NCBI RefSeq assembly: GCF_900218065.1
Contig: NZ_OBMU01000003.1
Location: 1 to 64,000, forward strand
From: Novosphingobium sp. Chol11
GTDB taxonomy: Bacteria; Pseudomonadota; Alphaproteobacteria; Sphingomonadales; Sphingomonadaceae
DNA length: 64,000 nucleotides
Direction of reading: 5' to 3'
Positions within the stretch are counted from its first letter, which is position 1; each line of letters opens with the position of its first letter. Position numbers and translations under genes: made by a program. Positions 41-19,893 of this stretch are shown here, piece by piece. Under the pieces are notes generated by a model. The model did not search any database. It was not told the origin of the DNA and was given only the letters and a program-made list of their open reading frames with translations.

Positions 41-859
41 ATGGCCGACAAGCGCCTGTCGCTCGACCATATCACCGTCACCGACACCACCCCCTGGCAG
101 CTGGCGCAGATCGCCGCAGAGGTGGGGTGTGAAGGCATCTGCCCGTTCCTCCATTCCATGGAGGTGCTGCCCGCCATGCCCAGCTATGACCTGGTGCGCG
201 ATCCCCAGGCGCTGCGCCAGACCCGCGATGCGCTCGCCGCCACCGGGGTCAAGGTCGACCTCATCTACCCCTTCACCATGGCAGGGCGCACCAACGTTGC
301 TGACTTCGCCCCCGCGCTCGAAACCGGCGCAGCATTGGGCGCGCCCCTCGCCAACGTCCTGTGCTACGACCGCGATCCTGTCCGCCGCACCGAAAAACTT
401 ATCGAACTCGCCGACCTGGCCGTCCCGTTCGGCATCGCGCTCTCGATCGAATTTTATCCCCCCTCCCAGGTCCGGACCCTCAGCGCCGCCCTCGAGGAAA
501 TAACCCGCGCCGGCCGCCCCGACATCAAGGTCACAGCCGACCTCCTCCACATCATGCGTGGCGGCGAAGCAGACACCAGCATGGCGCTCCTCCGTCACCC
601 CGCCATCGCCATCGCCCAGATCTCCGACGGACCCGCAACCATCGATCCATCCCGGATCGAACATGAAGCCGGCATCCAGCGCCTTCTCCCCGGGCAAGGC
701 AGCTTCAACATCACAGCGTTCGAACAAACCCTAAACCCCAACACTCCACTCAGCGTCGAAATACCACAGCAAAAACAAATAGACGCAGGAACAACACCAC
801 AACAACGCGCACAAAATGCGGTGGATTGCGTGAAGGAAGTAGTGAGAAGAACGCGCTGA
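41..859 (+). CDS. TIM-barrel sugar-phosphate isomerase/epimerase-like protein
   Basis: The 272-residue product has the layout of the xylose isomerase-like/AP-endonuclease-2 TIM-barrel family. Metal-ligand-type residues are visible: a Glu in SIEFYPPS near residue 138 and a DLLHIMRGG segment near 169 with the D-x-x-H arrangement. In this family a divalent metal supports isomerisation or epimerisation of sugars or other polyols, but the substrate here is unknown. An AGGAGAGG ribosome site lies just before the ATG. It is followed 29 bp later by an alpha/beta hydrolase on the same strand, so it probably belongs to the catabolic block. The last 50 or so codons are markedly A-rich compared with the rest of the gene. 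Confidence 0.75.
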   Translation: MADKRLSLDHITVTDTTPWQLAQIAAEVGCEGICPFLHSMEVLPAMPSYDLVRDPQALRQTRDALAATGVKVDLIYPFTMAGRTNVADFAPALETGAALGAPLANVLCYDRDPVRRTEKLIELADLAVPFGIALSIEFYPPSQVRTLSAALEEITRAGRPDIKVTADLLHIMRGGEADTSMALLRHPAIAIAQISDGPATIDPSRIEHEAGIQRLLPGQGSFNITAFEQTLNPNTPLSVEIPQQKQIDAGTTPQQRAQNAVDCVKEVVRRTR

Positions 860-888
860 AAACGAAAATAGGAAAATAGGAGAGAAGA

Positions 889-1839
889 ATGCGTGACCTG
901 ATCGAACCTAGCCTGTTGCCGGGGTTGGACTTCATGCCCTCGTTCGAACTCACGGCGGAGAGCCTGCCTGCGATCCGGGCGGGGATGGAGCAGATGAGCG
1001 CGGCGGTGCCCGAGCCGGAAGGTAGCGGGGTTGAGTGGCGGGAAGAGCGGATCGCTGCGCTTGGCGGCCATGAACTGGCGGTGAGGATTTATCGCCCGTC
1101 GGATGCCGAAGGCGTGCTTCCGGCTGTCCTGCATATCCATGGCGGCGGTTATGTGATGGGATCGGTGGCGACCAATCACCTGTCCAACATCGAGCTTGCG
1201 CGTGCCGCCTCCGCCCTCATCGTTTCGGTCGATTACCGGCTTGCGCCGGAGACGGTGGCACCCGGCGCGGTCGAGGATTGCTATGCCGCCCTGCAGTGGC
1301 TGCATGACAGCGCGGAGCAGTTGGGCATAGACCGGACGAGGATCGCCGTGCGCGGGGAGAGCGCGGGCGGCGGGCTGGCCGCGGCGCTGGCGTTGCTGGC
1401 GCGCGACCGGGGCGGCCCGGCGATCGCGCATCAGAACCTGATCTATCCCATGCTGGACGACCGCACCTGCATCACGCGGCTGCCTGCACATCTGGGCGCG
1501 TTCGTATGGACGCCGCAGGCCAACGCCTTTGGCTGGCGGAGCCTGCTGGGTCAGGAACCCGGATCGGCCGACATATCCCCCTATGCAGCGCCTGCACGGG
1601 CGGAGGATCTGGCCGGATTGCCACCCGCCTTCATCTGCGTGGGTGCGCTTGACCTCTTCCTGGTCGAGGACATGGACTATGCCCGGCGGCTGATCGAAGC
1701 GGGCGTCGCGGCCGAACTGCATGTCTATCCTGGCGCCTATCATGGTTTCGACGTGCTGCCAGATGCGCCGCCCGTTCTGCAGATGAAACGCGACGCCGTC
1801 GCCGCCCTGCGCAAGGCGCTCCATCCTGCTGAAATATAG
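889..1839 (+). CDS. alpha/beta hydrolase, hormone-sensitive lipase (HSL) family esterase
   Basis: This 316-residue protein carries the HGGG oxyanion-hole motif beginning at His84 and the nucleophile elbow G-E-S-A-G-G with Ser158. A candidate acid lies in GALDLF near residue 253 and the catalytic His in YHGFD near 285. These define HSL-family (type IV) carboxylesterases, which hydrolyse short acyl esters or lactones in the cytoplasm; no signal peptide is seen. The start follows a GGAGAGAAG ribosome site. Its position near a Baeyer-Villiger monooxygenase makes opening of an ester or lactone product a reasonable inference, but the substrate is not shown by the sequence. Confidence 0.88.
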   Translation: MRDLIEPSLLPGLDFMPSFELTAESLPAIRAGMEQMSAAVPEPEGSGVEWREERIAALGGHELAVRIYRPSDAEGVLPAVLHIHGGGYVMGSVATNHLSNIELARAASALIVSVDYRLAPETVAPGAVEDCYAALQWLHDSAEQLGIDRTRIAVRGESAGGGLAAALALLARDRGGPAIAHQNLIYPMLDDRTCITRLPAHLGAFVWTPQANAFGWRSLLGQEPGSADISPYAAPARAEDLAGLPPAFICVGALDLFLVEDMDYARRLIEAGVAAELHVYPGAYHGFDVLPDAPPVLQMKRDAVAALRKALHPAEI

Positions 1840-1950
1840 CAGGAGGAGCGGCGAAAAAATGAGCAAATAGCGGCGGTAACAGCATTGAGTCTGGTGCTGT
1901 GCGTAAGTGCGCGCTATCAAACCAGCTACATTTTTGAAGGCGGGGCAAGA

Positions 1951-2433
1951 ATGCAGATCAGAAGCGGGCGGAAAACAACGCCGCCATCGCTGGATACGCT
2001 CGACACGAATATCATAGAGATACTTCGGACCAACGGCCGCGCGACCAACCAGGAAATTGCGGAGCGGCTTTCCGTCACCGCCGCCACTGTTTCAGCCCGG
2101 CTGCAGAAGATGGAAGATGCCCGCGCCATGCGGGTGGTGGCCGTCACGGATTTTGCAGCCCATGGCTATAATGTGATCATCGCCCTGGGGGTCAAGGTCC
2201 AGGGCCGCAGCGTTCAGGATGTCGGTCAGGAACTCGCCGCTATTCCGGAAGTGCTGAGCGTCAATATCATGAGCGGCGAACATGATGTGGAGTTGCTCGT
2301 CGCGCTGCGTGACTTTGGCGAGGTCCAGCAGATGCTGTTCGATCGCATTGCCAGCGTCGATGGGGTCATTCACATAAGGTCGGGGGTGGCGGTGGACATC
2401 GTGAAATATGAATTCAACGTGGTGCCGCTGTGA
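1951..2433 (+). CDS. Lrp/AsnC family transcriptional regulator (first of a coupled pair)
   Basis: From the ATG at 1951 the product is 160 residues, the usual Lrp/AsnC length. It has an N-terminal winged helix-turn-helix (LDTNIIEIL, then NQEIAERLSVTAATVSARL) and a C-terminal RAM/ligand-sensing half. An upstream in-frame ATG at 1885 would add 22 residues that do not look like the family. The 1951 start, right before the DNA-binding domain and after a purine-rich stretch, is preferred. Its stop overlaps the GTG start of a second Lrp-type gene by four bases. These regulators bind DNA as dimers or octamers and respond to amino acids or other small metabolites; here the likely targets are the neighbouring catabolic genes. 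Confidence 0.9.
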   Translation: MQIRSGRKTTPPSLDTLDTNIIEILRTNGRATNQEIAERLSVTAATVSARLQKMEDARAMRVVAVTDFAAHGYNVIIALGVKVQGRSVQDVGQELAAIPEVLSVNIMSGEHDVELLVALRDFGEVQQMLFDRIASVDGVIHIRSGVAVDIVKYEFNVVPL

Positions 2434-2921
2434 CGGGGAAGGCTGATTGGGCGCGCCTGGACAAGCTGGACCAGGGCATTGTCGAAAAGCTTGCCCGTGA
2501 CGCGCGTATTTCGAACCGGGCGATCGCCGCGGAATTGGGTGTTACCGAAGGCACGATCCGCACGCGCGTCAAGCGGTTGCAGAATGAGGGGTTGATCCAG
2601 TTCACGGTCGTCACCGATTTCCGCATGGCAGGATCGCCTAATCTTTGCATGATGGGCATCGACGCCGACCCGTCGCAAGTGTCCGAACTGGCGCGCAGCC
2701 TGTCGGACCTTGAGGAAATCACATGCGTCATCGTGCTGCTGGGCCGCTACAGCCTGCTGGCGATGGGCCTGTTCACCAACATCGAGCAGTTGAACGATCT
2801 GGTGACGGAGCGCATACGGCCGATGCCGGGGGTGCAGCGCGTCGAAACGTCGGTGTCCGTCCATAACCTCAAATATGAGGCCGGTATCGCCAAGATCACG
2901 CGGGACGTCGTCGCAGGCTGA
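2430..2921 (+). CDS. Lrp/AsnC family transcriptional regulator (second of a coupled pair)
   Basis: The 163-residue product has a helix-turn-helix (LDQGIVEKLARDARISNRAI, then ELGVTEGTIRTRVKRL) and a C-terminal RAM-type domain. It starts at GTG 2430, in a GTGA overlap with the stop of the preceding paralogue, so the two are almost certainly translationally coupled. The pair is divergent in sequence, which suggests an old duplication or two separate sensing specificities, possibly as hetero-oligomers. It lies directly upstream of a SnoaL-like gene and an SDR gene of the catabolic block. Confidence 0.9.
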   Translation: MTGKADWARLDKLDQGIVEKLARDARISNRAIAAELGVTEGTIRTRVKRLQNEGLIQFTVVTDFRMAGSPNLCMMGIDADPSQVSELARSLSDLEEITCVIVLLGRYSLLAMGLFTNIEQLNDLVTERIRPMPGVQRVETSVSVHNLKYEAGIAKITRDVVAG

Positions 2922-2992: not shown

Positions 2993-3499
2993 ATGTCGAT
3001 CAATCTGGAAGAATTAGCCGCGCGTGTCACGGCACTGGAAGATGTCAGCGCAATCCGCCAGCTGAAGGCGCGCTATCTGCGCGCCTGCGACCTGAAGCTG
3101 GTCGATGAACTGCGCGAGACGTTCCTGCCGCAGGGCATCAGGCTGGATTACCAGAATTTCCCGCTGTTCACCGATCGTGACGAATTCATCGCCATATTCC
3201 AGAAGATGGCGATGGGGGGCGGTGTCTATGACATCCACCATGCGACGAACGCGGACATAGAATTGATCAGCCCCGATGAGGCGCGGGGGCGCTGGTCGCT
3301 CAATTTCCGCACGATCATCCTTGCGACCCGTTCGGTCACACGGCTCGCGGTGGAATATCAGGACGTCTATCGCAAGCAGGACGGCCGCTGGTGGATTGCA
3401 GAGTCGGTCAGCCGCATCACGTCGATCCTGACCGAAGAGATCGGGGAGGACGGCACGCCGCGCTATGTGGCGTTGGGTGAACTGCCCGGCGCTTCCTGA
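2993..3499 (+). CDS. SnoaL-like (NTF2-fold) protein, possible dehydratase or isomerase
   Basis: This 168-residue protein has the N-terminal helical signature of the SnoaL_4 group (ALEDVSAIRQLKARYLRACD) and a central DIHHATNADI strand with the paired His typical of this cone-shaped alpha+beta fold. Relatives include the dehydratase BaiE, scytalone dehydratase, the dehydrochlorinase LinA and many ring-hydroxylating-dioxygenase beta subunits. No large alpha subunit is nearby, so a stand-alone lyase or isomerase role is more likely. An AAGGAGAG ribosome site precedes the ATG. It is one of three SnoaL-type proteins within 7 kb. Confidence 0.8.
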   Translation: MSINLEELAARVTALEDVSAIRQLKARYLRACDLKLVDELRETFLPQGIRLDYQNFPLFTDRDEFIAIFQKMAMGGGVYDIHHATNADIELISPDEARGRWSLNFRTIILATRSVTRLAVEYQDVYRKQDGRWWIAESVSRITSILTEEIGEDGTPRYVALGELPGAS

Positions 3500-3639: not shown

Positions 3640-4422
3640 ATGGGCCGTTTGCAGGGCAAGGTTGCAATCATCACAGGCGGCGCTCGCGGCATGGGTGCCG
3701 CGACAAGCCGTTTGTTCGTCGAGGAAGGCGCGAAGGTCGCGATTACCGACGTGCTGGAGGAAGATGGCGCGCAACTGGCCGCCGAGCTGGGGGACGCCGC
3801 GCGCTTCTACCGCCATGATGTAACGAGCGAGGAAGGCTGGGCCGATCTGGTCCGGACGGTCGAAGCGGACCTTGGCCCCGTCGACATATTGGTCAATAAT
3901 GCGGGCATCCTGCTGTTCCGCACATTGCTGGACACGACGCTGGCCGATTATGAGCGTGTGTTGAAGGTCAACCTGACTGGTGAGTTTCTGGGCATCAAGG
4001 CTGTCGCGCCGGGCATGATCGCGCGGGGCAAGGGGGCGATCGTCAATATCTCGTCGGTTGATGGCATGAAGGGCGCCAACGGCCTTGCCGCCTATTCGTC
4101 GAGCAAATGGGGCGTTCGCGGGCTGACGCGGGTCGCTGCGCTGGAGCTTGGCCATCGGGGCATACGCGTCAATTCCGTGCATCCGGGCGGCGTGGACACG
4201 GTGATGACGAATCACGACGGTTCCACGCGCGAGAAGGTCAATGAGCGCTTTGGCAATGTGCCGCTTCAGCGCGTTGGTGCGCCGGAAGAGGTCGCGCGCG
4301 CGACATTGTTCCTGGCGAGCGACGAGGCTTCTTATCTTGCCGGGGCGGAGATCGCCGTCGATGGCGGCATGCTGACCGGCCAATATTATGTGCAGTTCCC
4401 TGGCGCGCCGGGGGTCGATTGA
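3640..4422 (+). CDS. short-chain dehydrogenase/reductase (SDR), classical type
   Basis: The 260-residue product contains the cofactor motif T-G-G-A-R-G-M-G near the N-terminus, the NNAG motif, and the catalytic Ser with Y-S-S-S-K (NISSVDG, then AAYSSSKWG). These are hallmarks of NAD(P)-dependent oxidoreductases acting on secondary alcohols or ketones; the overall style recalls hydroxysteroid dehydrogenases. An in-frame ATG at 3622 exists, but the ATG at 3640 starts the usual MGRLQGKVAIITG segment and follows a GGAGAGGCAG ribosome site. It is followed by a carboxymuconolactone decarboxylase-family gene in the same direction. Confidence 0.92.
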   Translation: MGRLQGKVAIITGGARGMGAATSRLFVEEGAKVAITDVLEEDGAQLAAELGDAARFYRHDVTSEEGWADLVRTVEADLGPVDILVNNAGILLFRTLLDTTLADYERVLKVNLTGEFLGIKAVAPGMIARGKGAIVNISSVDGMKGANGLAAYSSSKWGVRGLTRVAALELGHRGIRVNSVHPGGVDTVMTNHDGSTREKVNERFGNVPLQRVGAPEEVARATLFLASDEASYLAGAEIAVDGGMLTGQYYVQFPGAPGVD

Positions 4423-4464: not shown

Positions 4465-5022
4465 ATGATCCGTATCGACTTACCCGAGCAGGACGCCGCC
4501 GATCCCTATGGCTACGCATCGCGTAATTATGCGCGCGAGATCATGGCGGCAGCAGGAGGCTTTTCGAAGGCGGTCTATCAGCACAGCCTGTTGTCGCTGC
4601 GCGAGTTCGAGGGTGCACGGTCGCGCACGGCGCAGATCAATGGTTGCGTGATCTGTCAGCAGTTTCGGGCGGCGCGGGATGCGCAGTCGATGTTTGCCGC
4701 GTCCGGGCAACGGCCCGCGCATACGGTCGCCGACAATGGGCCAGCGCCGGATGAGGAGTTTTACGCGGCGGTCGAGAATTGGCGGACATCACCTCTGTTC
4801 AGCCCGCGCGAGCGGACGGCGATCGAATTTGCCGAGCGTTTTGCGCAGGAGCCCAAATCCATCGCCCAGGATGAGGATTTCTGGGCACGGGCGCATGCGC
4901 TGTTTTCCGACGAGGAGATCGTGGACCTGGCGCATAGTGTTGCGGCCTGGGTTGGACTGGGTCGGGTGGCACATGTGCTGGGGTTCGACAGCGTGTGTCT
5001 GCCTTTTGCCGAGGTGGCGTGA
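4465..5022 (+). CDS. carboxymuconolactone decarboxylase / AhpD-like family protein
   Basis: This 185-residue all-helical protein belongs to the CMD/AhpD superfamily by its central segment ARSRTAQINGCVICQQFRA and the later FSPRERTAIEFAERF helix. AhpD-type proteins use C-x-x-C in thiol peroxidase chemistry, with a His four positions after the second Cys; here that position is Arg, so peroxidase activity is uncertain. In catabolic clusters such proteins may act on lactones or as antioxidants. The start follows AAGGAGAGATGCC. The gene ends before a palindromic intergenic stretch and faces a convergent gene. Confidence 0.8.
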   Translation: MIRIDLPEQDAADPYGYASRNYAREIMAAAGGFSKAVYQHSLLSLREFEGARSRTAQINGCVICQQFRAARDAQSMFAASGQRPAHTVADNGPAPDEEFYAAVENWRTSPLFSPRERTAIEFAERFAQEPKSIAQDEDFWARAHALFSDEEIVDLAHSVAAWVGLGRVAHVLGFDSVCLPFAEVA

Positions 5023-5070
5023 GTTTAGCGCCTACCCATTTTTAATGAACGGAGTGTTTTAAGTACGTGC

Positions 5071-5214
5071 TCCCTCTCCCCTTTAGGGGAGAGGGCTGGG
5101 GAGAGGGGAACGCGGGGATCGGCGCGATGTCCCCCTCTCCCGGCTTCGCGTCGCTCGCCACCTCGGCCAGAGTCACGTGCCTCTGGCCGACCCCTAAAGG
5201 GGAGAGGGGAAAAA
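5071..5214. repeat. composite palindromic intergenic repeat
   Basis: Between two convergent genes lies a set of nested inverted repeats. A perfect 10-bp stem (CCCTCTCCCC / GGGGAGAGGG) with a TTTA loop spans 5072-5095. An 8-bp stem GGCCAGAG / CTCTGGCC spans 5165-5188. The element closes at about 5191-5209 with CCCCTAAAGGGGAGAGGGG, which repeats the right half of the first palindrome and is followed by AAAAA. The whole stretch resembles multi-copy palindromic elements of sphingomonads and may also work as a bidirectional terminator. Confidence 0.65.
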
Positions 5215-5232
5215 TCTGAGTTCCTGATGCTG

Positions 5233-6045
5233 TCAGCCGAGATTGCCGGGCTCAGCGTGGAGGATCATCGGGTCGCCGGTATGCGCGGCCCAGATCGCGT
5301 CTCGGCGTATGATGCGCCATCCTTCGGCACGCCGTTCCCACTGGTCGACATATTCGCCATTGGAATCAAAGATCGGGCCAGCCGGGTCGTCCACCCGCTG
5401 GTGCCGGGCCTGCACATAGGAACGGCTCGTCGCGCGATCGCCTTCGACGTCCACCAGGATGCTGCCGATCAGATGCTGGGTGCCGCCGCAGCGGTCAAGG
5501 AAACGGCGCATGTTGGTGGTGAGCGCCGCCATGCCATGCTGATCGCCGCCCGTGCCATAATCGAAGCTGAGATCATCGGCGAAGACATCGCTCAAGCGAT
5601 CCCATTGCTTGTTGTCGAGGATGCGGGCGAAGCGGGACAAGCCGCGCATGATCTCCCGTTCGTCCAGCAGCGCCTGCGGGGTGATGGCCCTGGCCATGTC
5701 CGCGCCCTTTTCATCGACCACCATCATGCGGGTTGCCGCACGATCCAGGAAATTTTCCTCATCCTGGGCGATTTGCCGGGCGATGTCCTCTTGCGCGGCG
5801 GCGGCGGTGAAGCGGTCATAGGCGGCGCGGTCGGCAAGCCATATTTCGGTGATGACGTCGAAGTCGATGGGGGCGGCGTCCGGAAACAGGAACGCGCCCT
5901 CCAGTTCGACATAGTTGCGGCGATAATCGACTATGCCCGGCAGCAGGCGCCGGATCAGGGGCGCGTGCTGCCTTTCATAATAGTCGATGAACGCTTCGCG
6001 GGAGAGATCCGGCTTGCGCCTGAGCAGTGCGATGCATTTGAACAT
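5233..6045 (-). CDS. EthD-domain / SnoaL-like domain fusion protein
   Basis: The 270-residue protein has two parts. Residues 1-100 or so match an EthD/ferredoxin-like dimeric barrel (FKCIALLRRKPDLSREAF, then YYERQHAPL), a fold found in small lyases, monooxygenases and decarboxylase-like proteins. From about residue 130 there is a SnoaL-like domain (ARILDNKQWDRLSDVFADDL and a conserved CGGTQHLIGS segment). Both domains normally occur as separate small proteins acting on cyclic intermediates. It lies 20 bp downstream of an SDR gene on the same strand and probably forms a two-gene operon with it. No substrate can be assigned. Confidence 0.78.
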   Translation of the reverse strand: MFKCIALLRRKPDLSREAFIDYYERQHAPLIRRLLPGIVDYRRNYVELEGAFLFPDAAPIDFDVITEIWLADRAAYDRFTAAAAQEDIARQIAQDEENFLDRAATRMMVVDEKGADMARAITPQALLDEREIMRGLSRFARILDNKQWDRLSDVFADDLSFDYGTGGDQHGMAALTTNMRRFLDRCGGTQHLIGSILVDVEGDRATSRSYVQARHQRVDDPAGPIFDSNGEYVDQWERRAEGWRIIRRDAIWAAHTGDPMILHAEPGNLG

Positions 6046-6065
6046 CGGCCACCTCCCTTAAAGGA

Positions 6066-6854
6066 TCAGGGCGCCATCCACTGGCCGCCATTGACGTCGA
6101 GCGAAGCGCCGCTGACGACGCGCGAATAGTCCGAGATCATCATCAGGACGGCGCGCGCGCAGTCATCTTCCGGCGGGATGATGCCGATCGGGATATTCTT
6201 GGTGACGCCAGCGACCACATCCTCGCGCTTGAACCCGGCGTCGACCTGCGACGCGATGAAACCTTCGACCGGCTCGCCATGGATCCAGCCCATGCGGCAG
6301 GTGTTGACGCGGATGCCATGGCGGCCAAGATCGCTGGCCATATATTTGCCCAAGGTGTTGAGCGCGCCCTTTGCCACTGCATAGGGCATCTCCATGCCGC
6401 CTTCGTGGCCATAGGGATTGACCGACGCCATGGTGGACACGTTCACGACTGCGCCGCCATCGCGCAGATAGGGGATGCAGGCGCGGGTAAGGCGGAGGGC
6501 GCCGACGCAGTTGACGTCGAAGGCCTTCGTGAAGTCGCCAATGTCGGCATTGTCGACGAAGCACCAGTCGCCATGATAATAGGCGCTGTTGACGAGGCCA
6601 TGGACCCGGCCGCCAAATTCCGCGGCGGCGCGTTCTGCCAGCGCCTTACACTGACCCTCATCGCTGACGTCGCAGGCGACGGCGATCGCCTTGCCGCCCT
6701 TTGCCGTGATGTCGGCGCATACTTCATCGAGAAAGGCCTGGTTGCGGGCGGCGAGGACGACGCTTGCGCCTTCGGATGCGGCTATGCGGGCCAGCGCCTG
6801 ACCCATGCCGGGGCCGACGCCGCTGACGATCACGACTTTGTCCTTCAGCAACAT
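6066..6854 (-). CDS. short-chain dehydrogenase/reductase (SDR)
   Basis: The start at 6854 gives a 262-residue protein beginning MLLKDKVVIVSG with the cofactor motif S-G-V-G-P-G-M-G, a catalytic Ser in NVSTMASV and the Y-A-V-A-K active-site motif. An upstream start at 6938 would add 28 Arg/Lys-rich residues foreign to the family, while 6854 is preceded by a GAAAGGAAAGAG ribosome site. It is a cytoplasmic NAD(P)-dependent alcohol/ketone oxidoreductase of unknown substrate, cotranscribed with the EthD/SnoaL fusion gene and divergent from the luciferase-like monooxygenase gene. Confidence 0.92.
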   Translation of the reverse strand: MLLKDKVVIVSGVGPGMGQALARIAASEGASVVLAARNQAFLDEVCADITAKGGKAIAVACDVSDEGQCKALAERAAAEFGGRVHGLVNSAYYHGDWCFVDNADIGDFTKAFDVNCVGALRLTRACIPYLRDGGAVVNVSTMASVNPYGHEGGMEMPYAVAKGALNTLGKYMASDLGRHGIRVNTCRMGWIHGEPVEGFIASQVDAGFKREDVVAGVTKNIPIGIIPPEDDCARAVLMMISDYSRVVSGASLDVNGGQWMAP

Positions 6855-7129
6855 CCTCTTTCCTTTCTCATCGCTTGCGCGGCCGATCCGCGAAATTCGG
6901 TCGGCAGCTTTGCGGCGCAGGATAAGAGAAAAAAACATTTGTTCAATGCGCTTTTTGCGGGAAGCGCCCGCTTCTATTCGGGATATGCGTAGCGGTAGGC
7001 GCTATCGCGCACGAAAGAGATTGCCGCTGCTGTTGACTGTATTTTCCGCCGAATGGATAAGGTGAGGAGCACCCGGCGCCGCAAGCAAAGCCGCCGCGGA
7101 TGAATAAAGCGAGATGGAAGGAGAGGGCG

Positions 7130-11700: not shown

Positions 11701-11704
11701 TCCC

Positions 11705-13298: not shown

Positions 13299-13329
13299 TA
13301 CCGATCGCACAAGGAGAGGACAGTCTTTC

Positions 13330-14793
13330 GTGGCCGACATTTCGCTTCATCGCCCCTATCCCGCCAGCAAGGTTGAACGGTGGGATTTCGAAACCGACGT
13401 CGCGGTTATCGGCTTTGGCGCGACGGGTGCATGCGCGGCGATCGAAGCGGCAGCCGGTGGTGCGCGGGTCATGCTGTTTGAACGGGGTTCGGGCAGCGGC
13501 GGGGCGTCGGCGCTGTCGGGCGGCGAAATCTACATCGGCGGTGGCGGCGGCACGGATGCTCAGCGCGCGGCGGGGTTCGAGGACAGCACGGAGGATTTGG
13601 CTGCTTATCTGAAGGCGGCAGGCGGGCCGTGCGCGGATGAAGCGAAGTGCGATCTTTATGCGCGGGAATCGCTTGGCCATTATGCCTGGCTGAAGGAGCA
13701 GGGCATCCCCTATCGCGGCAACTTCCTGCCCGGCAAGCATATCGAGCCGACCGACGATTCCACGCTGATCTGGTCGGGAAGCGAGGCGGCATGGCCGTTC
13801 TGCGAGATCGCGAAGCCTGCGCCGCGCGGCCATGTGATTGCGCATATGGGCTGGGGCGGGGGTCGGCCGCTGGTCGATCTGCTGGAGGCTCGGGCAAAGG
13901 CGCTGGGCGTTGAAGTGACAACCGATGCGCGCGCCGTTGCGCTGGTGCAGGATGACGATCGGCGAGTAGTCGGCGTCATCGTGCGCATCGACAATGTCAA
14001 TCGCTTCGTCCGGGCGGCAAAGGGCGTCATCCTCTGCACGGGCGGCTTTGCCTTCAACGAGGATATGCGGCGGCGCTATTGCCCCGACACGTTCAAGATC
14101 AGCAGCCCGATCGGCGATCAGGATGACGGCGTGGGCATCGAACTGGGCGTTGGTGCGGGCGGCGACGCCATCCATATGGAACAGTTCTTCACGACCTGCC
14201 CCTGGACCATGCCGGAGCCGCAGGCTCATGGCGTTTTCGTGAACCAGATGGGCCAGCGCTTCATCAACGAGGATTGCTATCACGGCCGGGTCAGCCGCGT
14301 TGCCATCGACCAGATGGGCGACAGGGTCTATCTGCTGCTCGACATCGCTCATTTCGACGAGCCGCTGCCCATGGCGGGGATGACGATAGCGGGCACGGGC
14401 GACAGCTGGGAAGAAGTCGAGGCCGAGCTGGAAATGGCGCCGGGTACGCTCTCTGCCACCATGGCATTCTACAATGCGCATGCGCGGGAAGGGCGCGATC
14501 CGCTGTTCCACAAGCGCGCGCCGATCCTGACGCCGCTGGATCAGGGGCCGTTCGTGGCGCTGGAGCTGAATTTCGCGACCAGCTATTTCAGCTTCTTCAC
14601 GCTGGGGGGCTTGAGGACCTCGACCGATGGCGAGGTGCTGGACCGGGCCGGTGCGCCGGTCGCTGGACTGTTCGCGGCGGGGCGCTGTACTTCGGGGCTG
14701 CCGGCATGGGGGCATGGTTATAGCTCTGGCCTCAGCCTTGCCGACTGCACCTTCTTCGGCCGCCAGGCTGGGCGGAAAGCCGCGCAGGGCTGA
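13330..14793 (+). CDS. FAD-dependent dehydrogenase, 3-ketosteroid dehydrogenase / fumarate reductase-like
   Basis: With the GTG start at 13330, preceded by AAGGAGAGG, the protein is 487 residues. An ATG at 13273 would overlap the SDR gene. It opens with a dinucleotide-binding motif (DVAVIGFGATGACAAIEAA) and ends with the FAD-contacting segment AAGRCTSGLPAWGHGYSSG, typical of the FAD-binding-2 family. This family includes 3-ketosteroid-delta1-dehydrogenases, fumarate reductases and urocanate reductase. No signal peptide or haem motif is seen. In this context a ring desaturation or reduction next to a ketone is the best guess. Confidence 0.88.
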   Translation: MADISLHRPYPASKVERWDFETDVAVIGFGATGACAAIEAAAGGARVMLFERGSGSGGASALSGGEIYIGGGGGTDAQRAAGFEDSTEDLAAYLKAAGGPCADEAKCDLYARESLGHYAWLKEQGIPYRGNFLPGKHIEPTDDSTLIWSGSEAAWPFCEIAKPAPRGHVIAHMGWGGGRPLVDLLEARAKALGVEVTTDARAVALVQDDDRRVVGVIVRIDNVNRFVRAAKGVILCTGGFAFNEDMRRRYCPDTFKISSPIGDQDDGVGIELGVGAGGDAIHMEQFFTTCPWTMPEPQAHGVFVNQMGQRFINEDCYHGRVSRVAIDQMGDRVYLLLDIAHFDEPLPMAGMTIAGTGDSWEEVEAELEMAPGTLSATMAFYNAHAREGRDPLFHKRAPILTPLDQGPFVALELNFATSYFSFFTLGGLRTSTDGEVLDRAGAPVAGLFAAGRCTSGLPAWGHGYSSGLSLADCTFFGRQAGRKAAQG

Positions 14794-14892: not shown

Positions 14893-16389
14893 TTGTCCAT
14901 CGATCAGGGCCGCAAAGGCCTGCGCTTCGCCGTTATCGGAGCAGGCATGGCCGGCATCCTTGCCGCCATTCGCCTGCGCCAGGCGGGCGAGGATTTCACG
15001 GTTTTCGAAAAGGCCGGGCGGCTAGGCGGCACCTGGCGGGAAAACCGGTATCCGGGCCTGACCTGCGACGTGCCCGCGCACGCCTATACCTATAGTTTCG
15101 AGCCCTATGCGGAATGGGACGCCTATTATGCCAAGGGCGGCGAGATCCAGACCTATTTCGAGAAGACGGCGGAAAAATACGGCATCATGCCGCACGTCCG
15201 CTTCGACAGCGAAGTCGTGTCCACGGTATGGGACGAAGGCGCTGGCGTCTGGCGTCTGGGACTGATCACCGGTGAAGAGGTCGAGGCGGAGGTCGTCATC
15301 GCGGCTTCGGGCGTTCTGCACCATCCCAAGCTCCCCGACATCGAAGGGCTGGACAGCTTCGAGGGGCAAGCGTTCCACAGCGCCCGCTGGCAGGATGATG
15401 CGCTGGTCGACGGCGCGCGGGTGGGTGTGGTCGGCAATGGGTCCACCGGCGTGCAGATCGTCACCGCGCTGAGCAAGCGTGCATCGAAGCTGGTACATTT
15501 CCAGCGCTCGCCGCAGTGGATCATGCCTGTCCCCTATTTCCAGTATAGCGAGGAAGAAAAGGAAGCCTTTCGCCGCGACCCTGCGCTGATCGAGGATATT
15601 CGCAACAACAAGGAATATTGGGACAGCATCTTCCGCTTCACCCATGCCATCACGGATACGCATGGTCCGGAGATCGCGGCGATCGAGCAAATCTGCCTCG
15701 ATAATCTGGAGAACAGCATCCGCGATCCTGAGCTCCGGGAAAAACTGCGCCCCAATTATCGCGCGGCGTGCAAGCGGCTGATCTACAGCTGGTCCTATTA
15801 TGACGCCGTGCAATCGCCGAACGTAGAGGTGGAGCGGAATCGCATCGCCCGCGTCGAGGCCAAGGGCGTGCGGATGGAAGACGGGCGGCTGCACGAACTT
15901 GATACGCTGGTGCTGGCGACCGGCTTCCATGCGGACCGCTTCATCCGCCCGACAACGGTTCTGGGCCGGGGTGGCGTTTCGCTCGATGATATATGGTCTG
16001 TTCGTCCGACGGCCTATTATGCCGTGACCATCCCGGGCTTTCCGAACTTCTTCATGTTGAATGGTCCGACCGGTCCTGTCGGCAACTTCTCCCTGATCGA
16101 CATTGCGGAGAAGCAATGGGCATATGTGGATCAGCTGATCGATCTGCTGCGGTCGGGTGAGGCCCGGACGATCGAACCGAGCGCTGACGCTCACGCCGAT
16201 TATGAGGAGCGGCGGATTGCGGCGGCGCGTACGACGATCTTCGGATCGGGTTGCAACAGCTGGTATCTGGATGCCACCGGCGTTCCGGCAAGCTGGCCCT
16301 GGAGCTATGAGGCATTTGCCGATGCCATGGCGGCTCCGGTGCTGACGGATTATCGAGTTGAGGCTGCGGCTGAACTGGTTGAGCGGTGA
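14893..16389 (+). CDS. Baeyer-Villiger flavin monooxygenase (BVMO)
   Basis: The 498-residue protein has two Rossmann motifs, G-A-G-M-A-G at residues 16-21 and G-N-G-S-T-G at 181-186. Between them is the BVMO fingerprint F-x-G-x-x-x-H-x-x-x-W (Phe156 to Trp166). Such enzymes use FAD, NADPH and O2 to insert oxygen beside a ketone carbonyl, giving an ester or lactone. The TTG at 14893 follows ACAGGAGAGTGAC and is the better start; an ATG at 14824 would add 23 residues with no family character. It closes the plus-strand run and is followed by an inverted repeat and a terminator. Confidence 0.93.
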   Translation: MSIDQGRKGLRFAVIGAGMAGILAAIRLRQAGEDFTVFEKAGRLGGTWRENRYPGLTCDVPAHAYTYSFEPYAEWDAYYAKGGEIQTYFEKTAEKYGIMPHVRFDSEVVSTVWDEGAGVWRLGLITGEEVEAEVVIAASGVLHHPKLPDIEGLDSFEGQAFHSARWQDDALVDGARVGVVGNGSTGVQIVTALSKRASKLVHFQRSPQWIMPVPYFQYSEEEKEAFRRDPALIEDIRNNKEYWDSIFRFTHAITDTHGPEIAAIEQICLDNLENSIRDPELREKLRPNYRAACKRLIYSWSYYDAVQSPNVEVERNRIARVEAKGVRMEDGRLHELDTLVLATGFHADRFIRPTTVLGRGGVSLDDIWSVRPTAYYAVTIPGFPNFFMLNGPTGPVGNFSLIDIAEKQWAYVDQLIDLLRSGEARTIEPSADAHADYEERRIAAARTTIFGSGCNSWYLDATGVPASWPWSYEAFADAMAAPVLTDYRVEAAAELVER

Positions 16390-16572: not shown

Positions 16573-18720
16573 TCAGCGGCCCATGGCGGCCACGGCTTCG
16601 GCTGCACCACGGATCGCGCCTTCGATATAGGTGACGCCGGTGCCGTCGCCGACCTCCACCACATCATGGCCCTGTGCGCGCAGGGCATTGGCAAGGGTGG
16701 AGTCGCCATGCGCGCCCATGGCAACCACCACATGATCGGCAGCAACGCTCTTCTGCTCACCGTCTGCACTGGTGAAGGTGACGCTGTTCTTGCCGATCGC
16801 GATGCCGCTCGCGCCGGGGAACATGGCCACGCCATGTTCGCGCAGTTCCGCCAGCAGGCGCATGCGGCGCACCAGCAGCAGGCCGCCGCCGAACCTGGGC
16901 GCTTCGCCGACAACCGTAACTTCACGGCCGCGTTCCATCAGGAATTCGGCCAGCTCAACGCCGACCAACTCGCCGCCGATGATCACGACGCGTTTACCGA
17001 GCGGCATCCAGGCATGGGTCGCCTTGCGCACCAGGTCGAGATTGGCGGTTGCGCCGGTCGCTGCGCCGAGCTTCGTCGCGACGCGGGTGGTCCAGCTGGT
17101 CTTGCGACGGATTTCAGCCGAATCCTCGCCCAGCATCATGCCGCGCAGATCGTCGCCCGACAGCACGAAGTCCTGATCATTGCCGGGGATCGGCGGCATG
17201 TCGCGCACGGCGCCGGTCGCGACGATGACCTTGTCGGGCTTGAGGCTGGCGATGAGGTCCGGGGTCGCGACAGTCTTCAGGCGCACATCGACCTTCGACT
17301 GGCCGATCTGGTCACGCAGCCAGTTGAGCAGCCGCTCATTGGGCTCATAAGCGAGGCCGGCGAAGCGCAGCGTGCCGCCCAGGCGATCGGATTTTTCGAG
17401 AAGCGTGACCTTCGCGCCCGCAAGGTCCAGCCTGCGCGCGGCTTCCATGCCGCCGGGGCCGCCGCCGATAACCACGACATGGCCGGGAACCTTGGCCGGG
17501 GACCAGTCGAGATCCTCATAACCGGTTTCCGACCGCACGGCGCAGCGCACCTGTTCGCGAAGATAGGCGGTGCTGACGCAGGTGTAGCAATAGATGCACG
17601 GGCGGATATCGGCCACCCGGCCTTCGGTCAGCTTGCGGGGCAGATCAGGGTCGGCGAGGAGCTTGCGACCCATGGCAAGGAAGTCGAACTCGCCCTGCGC
17701 CAACCCCTTGTCGCCGCGATCGAGCTCGACCCGACCCGACGCGATCACGGGGATCGAAACCACCTTCCGGATTGCGGCGGCGGCTTCCAGGTTGAAGGCG
17801 GGTTCATGCGGGATGTTGGAACCCGAATGGAGCTTGCCCTGGCCGACGTCATGATAGGCAGTGACGGTAAGCGCGTCGGCACCGGCCGCTTCGATCATAG
17901 GCGCCAGTTCAAGCGCATGGTCGATGGTGATGCCGTTTTTGCCCAGCTCGCGTGAATCCATCTTCACCCAGACGGGGAAATCCGGGCCGACCGCGGCGCG
18001 CACCGCGCGTACCACATCGAGGAGCAGGCGCGCGCGACCTGCCACGTCGCCGCCATATTCATCCTCGCGCGTGTTGGTGTAGGGCGAAACGAAAGAGGAG
18101 AGCAGATAGCCGTGGCCACCGTGGATCTCCAGGCCGTCCATTCCGGCGCGCTTGGCGCGTAGCGCGGCGTCGGCGAACTGGCGGATCGCATGATCGATGT
18201 CGGCCTTCTCCAGCACCTTGATCTGCGGCACCACGCCTCCGGCGAACGCAGCCATCTCTTCGGGCAGGAAAAAGTCTGGGAAGTCGCCCGCGAAGGGGGG
18301 CGGATATGCCGGAGCCCAGAGAGGATGCCCATCCTGCGCGCTGTGCCCGGCGACAAGGCCGCCATGGTGAAGCTGAGCAGCGATGCGCCCGCCTGCTGCA
18401 TGGACGGCCTCTGTCAGCTTCGTCAGGCCGGGCAGGAAGCGATCGTCCGAGATGGCGGTCTGGTTTGGCTGGACGGCGCCCACAGGCCAGGCGACGCCGG
18501 TCACGCCCATGATGATGAGGCCAGCGCCGCCCTTCGCCTGGGCGACATGATAGTCGATAAGGCGCTGGCCGACCGTACCGTCGGCTTCTGCCAGGCTGAC
18601 GCCCATGGCGGTGACGATGATGCGGTTGGGAAGGGTGAGCATACCGATCTGGCCGGGCGTGGTGAGAGATGCAGGCGCTGCGCCCGAACGGGATTGTGAA
18701 AGGGCAGGGGCAGCAGTCAT
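16573..18720 (-). CDS. FMN/4Fe-4S/FAD NADH:flavin oxidoreductase, 2,4-dienoyl-CoA reductase-like
   Basis: The 715-residue protein has three parts. An N-terminal OYE-like TIM barrel covers residues 20-370 (IEIHGGHGYLLSSFVSP-type segment). A Cys cluster C-x2-C-x2-C-x11-C near 380 (CIYCYTCVSTAYLREQVRC) should bind a 4Fe-4S centre. A C-terminal FAD/NAD(P) domain pair has VVIGGGPGGMEAARRL and VVIIGGELVGVELAE. This is the architecture of FadH, trimethylamine dehydrogenase and bile-acid enzymes BaiCD/BaiH, which reduce enoyl or enone bonds. It is transcribed alone, with an AGGAGACTC-type site before the ATG. Confidence 0.93.
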   Translation of the reverse strand: MTAAPALSQSRSGAAPASLTTPGQIGMLTLPNRIIVTAMGVSLAEADGTVGQRLIDYHVAQAKGGAGLIIMGVTGVAWPVGAVQPNQTAISDDRFLPGLTKLTEAVHAAGGRIAAQLHHGGLVAGHSAQDGHPLWAPAYPPPFAGDFPDFFLPEEMAAFAGGVVPQIKVLEKADIDHAIRQFADAALRAKRAGMDGLEIHGGHGYLLSSFVSPYTNTREDEYGGDVAGRARLLLDVVRAVRAAVGPDFPVWVKMDSRELGKNGITIDHALELAPMIEAAGADALTVTAYHDVGQGKLHSGSNIPHEPAFNLEAAAAIRKVVSIPVIASGRVELDRGDKGLAQGEFDFLAMGRKLLADPDLPRKLTEGRVADIRPCIYCYTCVSTAYLREQVRCAVRSETGYEDLDWSPAKVPGHVVVIGGGPGGMEAARRLDLAGAKVTLLEKSDRLGGTLRFAGLAYEPNERLLNWLRDQIGQSKVDVRLKTVATPDLIASLKPDKVIVATGAVRDMPPIPGNDQDFVLSGDDLRGMMLGEDSAEIRRKTSWTTRVATKLGAATGATANLDLVRKATHAWMPLGKRVVIIGGELVGVELAEFLMERGREVTVVGEAPRFGGGLLLVRRMRLLAELREHGVAMFPGASGIAIGKNSVTFTSADGEQKSVAADHVVVAMGAHGDSTLANALRAQGHDVVEVGDGTGVTYIEGAIRGAAEAVAAMGR

Positions 18721-18811: not shown

Positions 18812-18830
18812 AAGAATTTGTACGATTCTT
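18812..18830. promoter_or_regulatory. candidate operator dyad upstream of the OYE-type reductase gene
   Basis: An inverted repeat AAGAAT-N7-ATTCTT lies about 90-110 bp upstream of the reductase start at 18720, in an AT-richer intergenic stretch that also has a CGATTGATCGATTCG near-palindrome just beside it. The symmetry is seen directly. A regulatory role is only inferred from position. Confidence 0.3.
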
Positions 18831-18872
18831 TCCCGATTGATCGATTCGCAAAAGAATGATCGGATCTGACAA

Positions 18873-18908
18873 TAAAAAAGGGGGGCGATCGACCGATCGC
18901 CCCCCTTT
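18873..18908 (-). terminator. Rho-independent terminator after the aldo/keto reductase gene
   Basis: A 12-bp stem GGGGGGCGATCG / CGATCGCCCCCC with a very short loop is followed, on the minus strand, by TTTTTTATT. It lies 22 bp beyond the stop of the aldo/keto reductase gene and should end that transcript. Confidence 0.85.
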
Positions 18909-18930
18909 CCATTCTTTCAGGCTTAGAAGA

Positions 18931-19893
18931 TCAGCCGATCTTAAGCGCAGCCAGTTCGTCGGCCGACAGGGTGAGCGAGGCGGCCTTGACCGCTTCCTCG
19001 ATACGGGCCGGGCTCGACGCGCCGAAGATGGGGATCACCTGCTGCGGCTGGTTCAGCAGATAGGCGAGCACGACGTCCGAAACGCTGACGCCATGCTTGG
19101 CGGCGACATCCTTGGCAGCGGCCAGACGGTCCTTGTTGACCGGGTTGTCGTAGAAGCCCTGGAGATGCTCGGGCACTTCGCCCTTTTCAGCGAAAGCGAA
19201 GTAGCCGCGGCTCTGCGAGCAGTAGGGGATGATGGCCAGGCCAGCATCCTTGAGCTTGCCGCCATGATCTTCGAAATACATCTGGTAGCCCTGAGCCGTG
19301 GCAGCCTCTTCATTGGGCTTGGCGAGGCCCCAGAAGGGTTCGACGGCGACGAAGCCAGCCTTGCCGTTCGCCTTGGCATAGTCATTGGCTTCCAGCACGC
19401 GGGCGTCGGACCAGTTGGACGCGCCGAAATAACGGATCTTGCCCGCATTCTTGGCTTCGTTGAGGAAGTCGACCAGTTCGGCAACCGGGGTTTCCGGATT
19501 GTCCATGTGGACCCAGTAGAGGTCGATCGTGTCGACGCCGAGATGCTCAAGGCTCTCGTTCAGGTCGTTGCCGATGTCGGCCGGGTTGACGCGGTTGCGA
19601 TAGTCGCCAGCGCGCATGTCGAAATGCCCGCCCTTGGTCGCGACGATCACGTCTTCGCGCTTCTTGCCCTTCAGCCAAGCGCCGATGGCGCGTTCGCTGG
19701 CACCCTTGGGCGCGTCGGGCATCCAGTCACCATAGGAACGGGCGGTGTCGACGAAATTGCCGCCCAGCTCCAGAAACTTGTCGAGGATGGCGTTGCTGCG
19801 GTCCTGGTCGATCGACCAGCCGAGCATGTTGGTGCCATAGCACAGACGGCTGACCGAGAGGTCGGTATTGGCGAGCGTGACCTTTGAAAGCAT
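18931..19893 (-). CDS. aldo/keto reductase
   Basis: The ATG at 19893 gives a 320-residue protein, preceded by AGGAG; a start 81 bases upstream would add unrelated residues. The catalytic tetrad of the AKR family is visible: Asp and Tyr in NFVDTARSYG, Lys in VIVATKGGH and His in YWVHMDNPE. AKRs are cytoplasmic NADPH-dependent TIM-barrel enzymes reducing aldehydes or ketones. The segment PIFGASSPARIEEAVKA near the end is the usual NADP contact region. It is a single-gene unit with its own terminator at the edge of the catabolic block. Confidence 0.92.
   Translation of the reverse strand: MLSKVTLANTDLSVSRLCYGTNMLGWSIDQDRSNAILDKFLELGGNFVDTARSYGDWMPDAPKGASERAIGAWLKGKKREDVIVATKGGHFDMRAGDYRNRVNPADIGNDLNESLEHLGVDTIDLYWVHMDNPETPVAELVDFLNEAKNAGKIRYFGASNWSDARVLEANDYAKANGKAGFVAVEPFWGLAKPNEEAATAQGYQMYFEDHGGKLKDAGLAIIPYCSQSRGYFAFAEKGEVPEHLQGFYDNPVNKDRLAAAKDVAAKHGVSVSDVVLAYLLNQPQQVIPIFGASSPARIEEAVKAASLTLSADELAALKIG

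What the first reader, a model, noticed from the sequence alone, without database searches (positions are those of the whole stretch)
41..19893. Candidate undescribed catabolic cluster for a cyclic ketone or alcohol
Seen: an HSL hydrolase, five SDRs, a KstD-like flavoprotein, a BVMO with the full fingerprint, two OYE-family reductases (one FadH/BaiCD-like), an LLM monooxygenase, an AKR, three SnoaL-like proteins and four regulators in 20 kb. Known: such enzymes act in sequence on alicyclic, terpenoid or steroid-like rings, with BVMO giving a lactone and an esterase opening it; BaiE/BaiCD-type members act on bile acids. Inferred: the block forms one or two pathways for a cyclic substrate that does not need CoA activation at entry. 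No dioxygenase, CoA ligase, thiolase or TonB receptor is present, so it does not match the common aromatic or steroid layouts.
Basis: partly seen in the sequence, partly recalled or inferred. Interest (0 to 1): 0.72.

Follow-up and report, generated by a model that had tools for sequence, protein, structure and literature searches.

The report
Steroid-degradation cluster cut by contig end
This block of enzyme genes is most likely one arm of a large plasmid-type gene cluster with which a soil bacterium eats steroids, probably the part that trims the steroid before its rings are broken; the rest of the pathway lies just past the end of the assembled piece.

Summary
The genes are real, intact and in the stated place, but "not a steroid layout" is an assembly artefact: base 1 of the window is base 1 of contig C6. 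In megaplasmids of Sphingobium sp. TomMM7A and S. herbicidovorans the block runs on, next gene, into the 9,10-seco steroid pathway (tesG/F/E, hsaB, tesD, hsaA, tesB, ipdAB-like and beta-oxidation genes). In the window's own genome these fill contig C8, whose end stops in the same spacer. The KstD-like gene resembles 3-ketosteroid-Delta4-(5alpha)-dehydrogenase and lies near tes/hsa genes in 25 of 30 relatives' loci. The BVMO is about 72% identical to, and reciprocal best match of, the Caenibius tardaugens enzyme shown to turn progesterone into testosterone acetate. SDR1 is closest to 3alpha,20beta-hydroxysteroid dehydrogenase. Best reading: a feed-in module that oxidises and desaturates steroids, removes a two-carbon C17 side chain by Baeyer-Villiger oxidation plus esterase, and delivers 3,17-diketosteroids to the adjoining pathway. 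The substrate is unproven; the genome also carries glycosidase sets like those of tomatine-degrading Sphingobium. New member of a known kind; chiefly useful for naming a candidate for the missing steryl-acetate hydrolase.

The parts
41..859 (+). Gene 01: xylose-isomerase-like TIM-barrel protein, first gene after tesG in relatives; step unknown
   Evidence: PF01261 E 7e-14; follows tesG in L039, L040 and in L168 at 72% identity; no PDB hit at E<=1e-5
889..1839 (+). Gene 02: HSL-family esterase; candidate steryl-acetate hydrolase (inference)
   Evidence: PF07859 E 3e-62; PDB hits include heroin esterase 1lzk, E 4e-60; HGGG, GESAG and YHG motifs in the sequence (motif meaning recalled)
1951..2433 (+). 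Gene 03: Lrp/AsnC regulator 1 (start set by TomMM7A annotation)
2430..2921 (+). Gene 04: Lrp/AsnC regulator 2
   Evidence: paired Lrp genes recur in N. aromaticivorans pNL2 and, per a passage of PMC12882949, in the Chol11 bile-salt cluster
2993..3499 (+). Gene 05: SnoaL_4 protein
   Evidence: PF13577 E 4e-25
3640..4422 (+). Gene 06 (SDR1): 3alpha,20beta-hydroxysteroid dehydrogenase-like SDR (frame open from 3622)
   Evidence: the only three PDB sequences at E<=1e-60 are Rv2002 1nff and 3alpha,20beta-HSD 2hsd, 1hdc
4465..5022 (+). Gene 07: carboxymuconolactone decarboxylase-like protein
   Evidence: PF02627 E 8e-6
5233..6045 (-). Gene 08: EthD + SnoaL_4 fusion
   Evidence: PF07110 E 8e-17 and PF13577 E 6e-31
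6066..6938 (-). Gene 09 (SDR2); 46-52% homologs near gene 17 in many relatives
7130..7999 (+). Gene 10: LLM-class flavin oxidoreductase, not the pdc-type LLM (frame open from 7100)
   Evidence: PF00296 E 6e-37; 51% to an LLM on a Tsukamurella steroid plasmid; pdc-type LLM is elsewhere in the genome, C9:38782
7993..9084 (-). Gene 11: AraC-family regulator
   Evidence: PF12625, PF12833
9163..9792 (+). Gene 12: SnoaL_4 protein, first of the SnoaL-OYE-SDR-SDR run
   Evidence: 91% in pNL2
9797..10870 (+). Gene 13 (OYE1): ene-reductase of the NemA/PETNR kind
   Evidence: PF00724 E 4e-79; PDB 6s32, 5epd; 78% in pNL2
10909..11700 (+). Gene 14 (SDR3)
   Evidence: 73% in pNL2
11705..12520 (+). Gene 15 (SDR4)
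   Evidence: 75% in pNL2
12543..13298 (+). Gene 16 (SDR5)
   Evidence: 70% in pNL2
13327..14793 (+). Gene 17: 3-ketosteroid-Delta4-(5alpha)-dehydrogenase-like flavoprotein
   Evidence: best PDB 4at0 E 2e-102 against 4c3x (3-ketosteroid dehydrogenase) 6e-22; in one stretch with tes/hsa genes in 25 of 30 relatives' loci
14893..16389 (+). Gene 18: Baeyer-Villiger monooxygenase, ortholog of the progesterone BVMO of C. tardaugens
16573..18720 (-). Gene 19 (OYE2): large OYE/flavoprotein, BaiCD / 5beta-Delta4-KSTD-like
   Evidence: PF00724 + PF07992; NCBIfam BaiCD 403 bits, under the 825 cut-off; homolog of 51% or more within 6 kb of the BVMO in 12 of 20 loci
18931..19893 (-). Gene 20: aldo-keto reductase (frame open to 19974)
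   Evidence: PF00248 E 4e-60; nearest PDB DepB 8hwn; 60-65% near gene 17 in five loci, 79% near tesG in L168

Best explanation
The block is the feed-in (upper) arm of a 9,10-seco steroid-catabolic supercluster of a Sphingobium, on a megaplasmid in its named relatives. Likely order: (1) hydroxysteroid dehydrogenases (SDR1, other SDRs, AKR) oxidise 3-OH and 20-OH groups; (2) gene 17 (5alpha) and possibly OYE2 (5beta) put the Delta4 double bond into saturated 3-ketosteroids; (3) the BVMO inserts oxygen between C17 and C20 of a 20-ketone, giving a 17-acetate; (4) the HSL esterase hydrolyses the acetate; (5) an SDR makes the 17-ketone; (6) the 3,17-diketo product enters KshA/KstD and the adjoining tes/hsa and ipd genes. 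Shown here: location, synteny, orthology of the BVMO, family placement of genes 06, 17, 19. Shown by others for the C. tardaugens BVMO: reaction 3. Inferred: steps 1, 2, 4, 5 for these proteins, and the natural substrate. The roles of the TIM barrel, SnoaL, EthD, CMD and LLM proteins stay open. Likelihood by step: steroid cluster about 0.95; BVMO acts on a 20-ketosteroid about 0.65; gene 17 is a Delta4-(5alpha) dehydrogenase about 0.65; esterase takes the acetate about 0.45.
For: Synteny: 12 of 22 plasmid records with a match hold >=80% of the block, all 12 Sphingobium; the next gene upstream is tesG, then tesF/E, hsaB, tesD, hsaA, tesB, ipdAB-like genes (most tes/hsa/ipd names are mine, from annotation and order; hsaC and the diseco-steroid hydrolase are so annotated). 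Own genome: the same lower genes fill C8:11-14020 in the orientation that puts tesG against window base 1. Survey of 298 family genomes: gene 17 at >=63% identity in 33, all 33 with a TesB hit; BVMO at >=57% in 22, 21 with TesB; TesB in 44 overall. BVMO: SARO_RS19410 finds it first in the own genome, 71%, next by score 35%; the C. tardaugens pdc BVMO finds it at 73%, next 34%; that enzyme converts progesterone to testosterone acetate (PMC12239570, abstract, passages, sections 7, 11, 12). Gene 17: 4at0; Tyr319, Tyr466, Ser468 of 4at0 (active-site role and numbering recalled) aligned to Tyr, Tyr, Ser. Gene 06: 3alpha,20beta-HSD. Five KshA-type genes in the genome. Homologs of LLM gene 10 (51%) and gene 17 (42%) lie with kstD, a Rieske protein, hsaA and hsaD on a Tsukamurella plasmid.
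Against: The join C8-C6 is inferred from relatives; no exact overlap above 8 bases was found. The BVMO's fingerprint ends in Q. The pdc LLM and the TetR/LuxR regulators are not beside this BVMO. BVMO and gene 17 lie 8-68 kb apart in 10 of 12 genomes that have both on one contig, but 1.5 and 2.7 Mb apart in the other two, G289 and G071. An Abhydrolase_3 homolog of gene 02 was found in 7 of 20 BVMO loci, five of those at only 35-47%; a gene 06 homolog above 50% identity only in the two fully syntenic ones. One BVMO carrier (G204, 58%) has no TesB hit. In 5 of 30 loci gene 17 had no tes/hsa gene in the stretch, three of them near a contig end. A 54% homolog of the LLM in Rhodococcus opacus has no clear steroid genes around it. 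The tomatine paper scored S. herbicidovorans as lacking 3KSDelta4DH although it has gene 17 at 94%, so its pipeline did not count gene 17 as one. No expression or activity data for this strain.
Confidence: 0.8

Rival explanations
1. Sapogenin module: the block removes the E/F rings of spirosolane or spirostane aglycones (tomatidine, diosgenin) after plant saponins have lost their sugars, with the BVMO and LLM making the cut.
For: Full block on plasmids of Tom strains, isolates that degrade alpha-tomatine, most of them from alpha-tomatine-treated soil; own genome carries GH3-GH106-esterase-GH78 at 88-94% to the TomMM7A plasmid set and a GH3-GH39-GH3 run. Sphingobium sp. MI1205, which does not degrade tomatine, is not among the 14 Sphingobium records; whether its plasmids are in that collection was not checked.
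Against: Close relatives, so co-occurrence is not independent. BVMO, gene 17 and OYE2 homologs are spread over many other genera. S. herbicidovorans has the block but stops part-way on tomatine. No enzyme tested. The RNA-seq table of the tomatine paper is a supplement that could not be read here.
Confidence: 0.2
2. Bile-salt or general A-ring module: OYE2, gene 17, SDRs and AKR fix the A ring of 5alpha/5beta steroids; the BVMO is a minor passenger.
For: OYE2 belongs to the BaiCD-like group that holds 5beta-Delta4-KSTD1 of Chol11 (PMC8044976 passages); paired Lrp genes as in the Chol11 bile-salt cluster; SnoaL-OYE1-SDR-SDR run with amidase, Rieske and adenylate-forming enzyme genes on pNL2.
Against: No CoA ligase or amidase in the block; two Chol11 paralogs of that OYE group had no activity on bile salts. 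BVMO co-occurs with the steroid genes.
Confidence: 0.25
3. A non-steroid alicyclic pathway (terpenoid, lignin dimer, cyclic ketone) that merely sits beside steroid genes.
For: OYE, BVMO and SDR families also serve terpenoids (general knowledge); cyclohexanone monooxygenases are the best PDB hits of the BVMO, ahead of steroid monooxygenase.
Against: Synteny with tes genes, co-occurrence with TesB, and orthology to a steroid-active BVMO.
Confidence: 0.04

Closest known systems
pdc cluster of Caenibius tardaugens NBRC 16725 (BVMO EGO55_13845, LLM EGO55_13860; PMC12239570)
   Same: Orthologous BVMO (72-73% identity); near the steroid cluster in both
   Different: Here the BVMO is linked to gene 17, OYE1/2, SDRs, AKR, an esterase and, through them, directly to tesG; the pdc LLM ortholog is on contig C9; regulators are Lrp/AraC, not TetR/LuxR
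SD (testosterone) cluster of C. tardaugens / N. tardaugens ARI-1 (PMC6895838) and tes clusters of Comamonas
   Same: tesB, tesD, tesEFG, hsaA, ipd-like genes near gene 17, AKR, SDR2 and TIM homologs in G189
   Different: The passages I read do not name these flanking genes; the BVMO lies about 39 kb from gene 17 there
3-ketosteroid-Delta4-(5alpha)-dehydrogenase of Rhodococcus jostii RHA1 (4at0; organism recalled)
   Same: Full-length match, three recalled active-site residues kept
   Different: Substrate range untested
5beta-Delta4-KSTD1 (Nov2c019) of Sphingobium sp. Chol11 (PMC8044976)
   Same: Large OYE + flavoprotein architecture, BaiCD-like, in a steroid context
   Different: Direct comparison not made (sequence not at hand); OYE2 may instead match an inactive paralog
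Alpha-tomatine pathway of Sphingobium sp. RC1 (PMC10653915)
   Same: The window's genome carries like glycosidase sets and regions syntenic with Tom-strain megaplasmids
   Different: The parts I read (abstract, passages, sections 8 and 12) assign sugar removal and C3 oxidation, not this block

Membership tests
9,10-seco steroid degradation supercluster | tesB/hsaC, tesD, hsaA/tesA2, tesEFG in one cluster | tested here: met
   Contiguous with the block in L039 and L040; in the own genome on contig C8, join inferred
9,10-seco steroid degradation supercluster | 3-ketosteroid 9alpha-hydroxylase (KshA) in the genome | tested here: met
   Five KshA_C matches over cut-off; control genomes over cut-off 0 of 14
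9,10-seco steroid degradation supercluster | 3-ketosteroid Delta1-dehydrogenase in the genome | not tested
   no search for it was run on the own genome
9,10-seco steroid degradation supercluster | Growth on a steroid | not testable with these tools
   needs culture
pdc progesterone cluster | Orthologous BVMO | tested here: met
   Reciprocal best with SARO_RS19410 (71%, next 35%) and with the C. tardaugens gene (73%, next 34%)
pdc progesterone cluster | Adjacent LLM of the EGO55_13860 type | tested here: not met
   Ortholog at C9:38782-39921, 76%; window LLM has no match in pNL2 at E<=1e-30. So the block is not filed as a pdc cluster
pdc progesterone cluster | TetR and LuxR regulators beside BVMO/LLM | tested here: not met
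   Only Lrp/AsnC and AraC in the block
pdc progesterone cluster | Conversion of progesterone to testosterone acetate | not testable with these tools
   needs assay
Type I BVMO | Fingerprint FxGxxxHxxxW[P/D] (recalled) | tested here: inconclusive
   F, G, H, W kept; last position Q, so the strict pattern fails. It is D in C. tardaugens and Q, R, E or D in the Sphingobium orthologs aligned
Type I BVMO | [AG]GxWxxxxYPGxxxD motif (recalled) and match over both dinucleotide domains | tested here: met
   GGTWRENRYPGLTCD; matches to CHMO, PAMO, steroid monooxygenase in two stretches
3-ketosteroid-Delta4-(5alpha)-dehydrogenase | Closer to 4at0 than to Delta1-type dehydrogenases, active-site Tyr/Tyr/Ser kept | tested here: met
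   E 2e-102 against 6e-22 (4c3x) and 4e-16 (7p18, 3-oxosteroid 1-dehydrogenase); residues aligned (their role is recalled, the listing gave no paper stating it)
5beta-Delta4-KSTD (OYE type) | OYE + Pyr_redox architecture, BaiCD-like, steroid activity | tested here: inconclusive
   Architecture met; BaiCD model 403 of 825 bits; activity untested
3alpha,20beta-hydroxysteroid dehydrogenase | Closest solved relatives are 3alpha,20beta-HSD | tested here: met
   1nff, 2hsd, 1hdc only, at E<=1e-60; SDR families are broad, so this is similarity, not proof of activity

The most novel reading that the evidence does not exclude
The block is the still unknown module by which root-associated Sphingobium take the E/F-ring side chain off steroidal sapogenins: a pregnane-like 20-ketone is formed, the BVMO (or LLM) turns it into a 17-ester, the HSL esterase cuts it, and the C19 product drops straight into the adjoining tes genes. 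The same esterase type would be the missing steryl-acetate hydrolase of bacterial progesterone breakdown.
Probability: 0.18. Interest if true: 0.7.

Novelty: new member of a known kind. Interest (0 to 1): 0.42.

Why it matters
It turns an apparently orphan cluster into a readable steroid pathway and shows that a contig end can hide the defining genes. It makes two open points testable: which enzyme hydrolyses testosterone acetate (called unknown in PMC12239570, section 11), and how sphingomonads take off the side chain of plant steroidal saponins. It also links the BVMO to an OYE of the BaiCD type in 12 of 20 loci, a pairing not mentioned in the sections of that paper that I read; 'flavin oxidoreductase' and 'ene-reductase' do not occur in its main text.

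Tried and rejected
Window LLM as the pdc LLM: rejected, the pdc-type LLM is at C9:38782. Gene 17 as a Delta1-KSTD: less likely, E 6e-22 against 2e-102 for the Delta4 enzyme. OYE2 as BaiCD proper: under the model's cut-off. NCBIfam names for the SDRs: over 220 families each, 25 shown, nearly all under cut-off and the few over it generic, so not used. Gene 01 against solved structures: no hit. A paper stating the 4at0 active-site residues: none in the 8 papers listed. GH106 region on C4: no synteny with Tom plasmids, only a 56-base match. Structure prediction, fold search and RNA tools were not used, as family placement was already clear.

Literature limits: searched open-licence PMC papers only, and some listings were cut. 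No title or abstract start that I saw describes this block; that is no proof that none exists. Seen: PMC10653915 abstract, passages, sections 8 and 12; PMC12239570 abstract, passages, sections 7, 11, 12; PMC8044976, PMC8399759, PMC6895838, PMC12882949 passages only. The 4at0 structure paper is recalled, not seen.

Counts and drops: gene 17 at 63% identity or more is in 33 of 298 genomes (G135 by a partial match; G244 at 61%, partial, left out). Of the 32 other than the own genome, 30 were fetched and mapped; G116 and G135 were not. In one search the eight BVMO carriers at 44-52% identity were counted apart: 0 of 8 have TesB. The own genome is counted in the Fisher tests.

Full report
What is there. 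The 20 kb hold 20 intact genes: TIM barrel, HSL esterase, two Lrp/AsnC regulators, SnoaL, SDR1, a CMD-like protein, an EthD-SnoaL fusion, SDR2, LLM, AraC, SnoaL, OYE1, SDR3, SDR4, SDR5, a KstD-like flavoprotein, BVMO, OYE2 and an AKR, followed at 20.1 kb by a Tad pilus cluster.

The edge. The window starts at base 1 of contig C6 of the genome. Twelve plasmid records, all Sphingobium, hold at least 80% of the block at about 82-89% DNA identity. In TomMM7A (AP027312) and S. herbicidovorans MH (NZ_CP020539) the gene just before gene 01 is tesG (annotated 4-hydroxy-2-oxovalerate aldolase); then come tesF, tesE, a flavin reductase (hsaB), tesD (annotated diseco-steroid hydrolase in TomMM7A), an hsaA-like gene, the extradiol dioxygenase tesB (annotated hsaC in TomMM7A), a two-subunit CoA transferase (ipdAB-like), enoyl-CoA hydratases, acyl-CoA dehydrogenases and a thiolase. 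The tes/hsa/ipd names that are not in the annotation are mine. All 20 block genes are kept, median protein identity 95% and 89%. TomMM7A has two more genes inserted before gene 06. In S. herbicidovorans the gene 06 match is split over two frames and no gene is listed there (the plasmid gene table leaves out pseudogenes).

The same genome. The lower genes are on contig C8 (22.4 kb): C8:11-14020 matches TomMM7A at 90% and ends in the tesG-gene 1 spacer, in the orientation that faces window base 1. The join itself is inferred; no exact overlap above 8 bases was found.

Wider context. On the TomMM7A megaplasmid the region 184-300 kb also holds three 'putative oxygenase' genes, of which the one tested is KshA-type, an annotated steroid Delta-isomerase, an LLM gene beside a LuxR regulator, two TonB receptors and a P450. 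No CoA ligase is annotated in the parts I saw. The own genome has a stretch on C9 syntenic with 206-226 kb of it, with the pdc-type LLM, and five KshA-type genes.

Gene 17. Its best solved relative is 3-ketosteroid-Delta4-(5alpha)-dehydrogenase, 4at0 (E 2e-102), far ahead of the 3-ketosteroid dehydrogenase 4c3x (6e-22). Tyr319, Tyr466 and Ser468 of 4at0 (role and numbering recalled) align with Tyr, Tyr, Ser. Of 32 other genomes with gene 17 at 63% or more I mapped 30. In 25 of 30 loci it lies in one stretch of at most 20 kb with tes or hsa genes, in many within about 1.1 kb of tesG. Of the five others, three (L048, L050, L070) lie within 3.3 kb of a contig end and two (L075, L076) have no tes gene in the 20 kb fetched.

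Survey. In the same 298 family genomes, gene 17 at 63% identity or more is in 33, all with a TesB hit (E<=1e-50); the BVMO at 57% or more is in 22, of which 21 have TesB (not G204); TesB hits are in 44. Fisher tests give 9e-35 and 5e-19, without correction for shared ancestry. Eight genomes with weaker BVMOs (44-52%) have no TesB. In the 12 genomes other than the own one that have both on one contig, BVMO and gene 17 are 8 to 68 kb apart in 10, and 1.5 and 2.7 Mb apart in two.

BVMO. It is 71% identical to SARO_RS19410 of pNL2, which lies beside a TetR gene as the paper says of Saro_3708; that the two names mean one gene is inferred from this. That protein's best match in the own genome is this BVMO; the next by score is 35%. 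G189 is C. tardaugens: its contig is 4,358,096 bases, the published genome size, a second BVMO lies 1.42 Mb away, as published, and the two are 53.5% identical against 53.0% published. Its BVMO, beside a pdc-type LLM (90% to that of pNL2), is 72% identical to the window's and finds it first in the own genome, next 34%. The published enzyme makes testosterone acetate from progesterone, and the BVMO/LLM double mutant could not grow on progesterone (PMC12239570). The hydrolase for the acetate is called unknown there.

Neighbours of the BVMO. Over 20 distinct loci with a BVMO of 57% or more, an OYE2 homolog (51% or more) is within 6 kb in 12, and an Abhydrolase_3 homolog within 16 kb in 7, counting TomMM7A and S. 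herbicidovorans in both. In S. quisquiliarum (L168) tesG is followed by the TIM barrel (72%), an SDR, the esterase (72%) and the AKR (79%). In N. aromaticivorans pNL2 the run SnoaL-OYE1-SDR3-SDR4 (91, 78, 73, 75%) lies with OYE2 (66%), paired Lrp genes, an amidase, a Rieske protein and adenylate-forming enzymes.

LLM. Gene 10 is not the pdc LLM. A 51% homolog lies on an 18.7 kb Tsukamurella plasmid with kstD, a Rieske protein, hsaA, hsaD and a 42% homolog of gene 17, so this LLM also keeps steroid company outside the Proteobacteria. A 54% homolog in Rhodococcus opacus lies among acyl-CoA dehydrogenases, an adenylate-forming enzyme and amidase genes, without clear steroid genes.

Which steroid. 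Progestogens fit BVMO, esterase and the 3alpha,20beta-HSD-like SDR1. Sapogenins fit the host: glycosidases GH3-GH106-esterase-GH78 at 88-94% to the TomMM7A plasmid set, taken to be the saponin glycosidases of PMC10653915 because that paper places its GH3, GH106 and GH78 enzymes on a plasmid, and a GH3-GH39-GH3 run. Against: S. herbicidovorans has the block, yet stops at products with major ions m/z 410 and 408. By mass alone (tomatidine m/z 416) those are three and four hydrogen pairs short, which suggests that A-ring desaturation went ahead although the paper lists no 3KSDelta4DH there; gene 17 could account for it. This is my arithmetic on ions that may be fragments, not a structure.

Verdict. 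A steroid feed-in arm; the chemistry of the core Baeyer-Villiger step is known from a close relative; the arrangement and several partners are not described in the papers I could search.

Noticed in passing
window 36355-59384: Cobalamin biosynthesis cluster (tetrapyrrole methylases, CobN, phosphoribosyltransferase, CobD) on the same contig; TomMM7A carries methylmalonyl-CoA mutase genes at 239-242 kb of the steroid region, so B12 may serve propionyl-CoA from steroids; a passage of PMC6895838 says such genes are induced by testosterone.
   Followed up: partly
window 20136-29797: Tad/Flp pilus cluster directly downstream, kept in the same place in TomMM7A and S. herbicidovorans.
   Followed up: no
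window 31138-35971: PrkA, DUF444 (YeaH) and SpoVR genes in a row.
   Followed up: no
L148 (G000:C6:210000-229999), 4894-13429: GH3-GH106-esterase-GH78 set, 88-94% identical to that of TomMM7A, one of the Tom isolates.
   Followed up: partly
L162:11201 (G189): An Abhydrolase_3 gene (39% to gene 02) lies about 6 kb from the C. tardaugens pdc BVMO; it is not mentioned in the paper's sections I read.
   Followed up: partly
window 9797-10870: OYE1 reads HCAS where OYE enzymes usually have His-x-x-Asn/His (recalled), so one substrate-binding residue may be Ser.
   Followed up: no
L040:17607-18394: S. herbicidovorans copy of gene 06 is split over two frames; the strain degrades tomatine only partly.
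   Followed up: partly
G000:C6:65731-66336: A KshA-type gene lies 1.7 kb past the end of the window.
   Followed up: no
G000:C6:84371-85441 and 350450-351511: Two more OYE-family genes in frames of 717 and 723 aa, the size of OYE2.
   Followed up: no
L175: Small Tsukamurella plasmid that carries a compact steroid gene set with kstD, hsaA, hsaD.
   Followed up: partly
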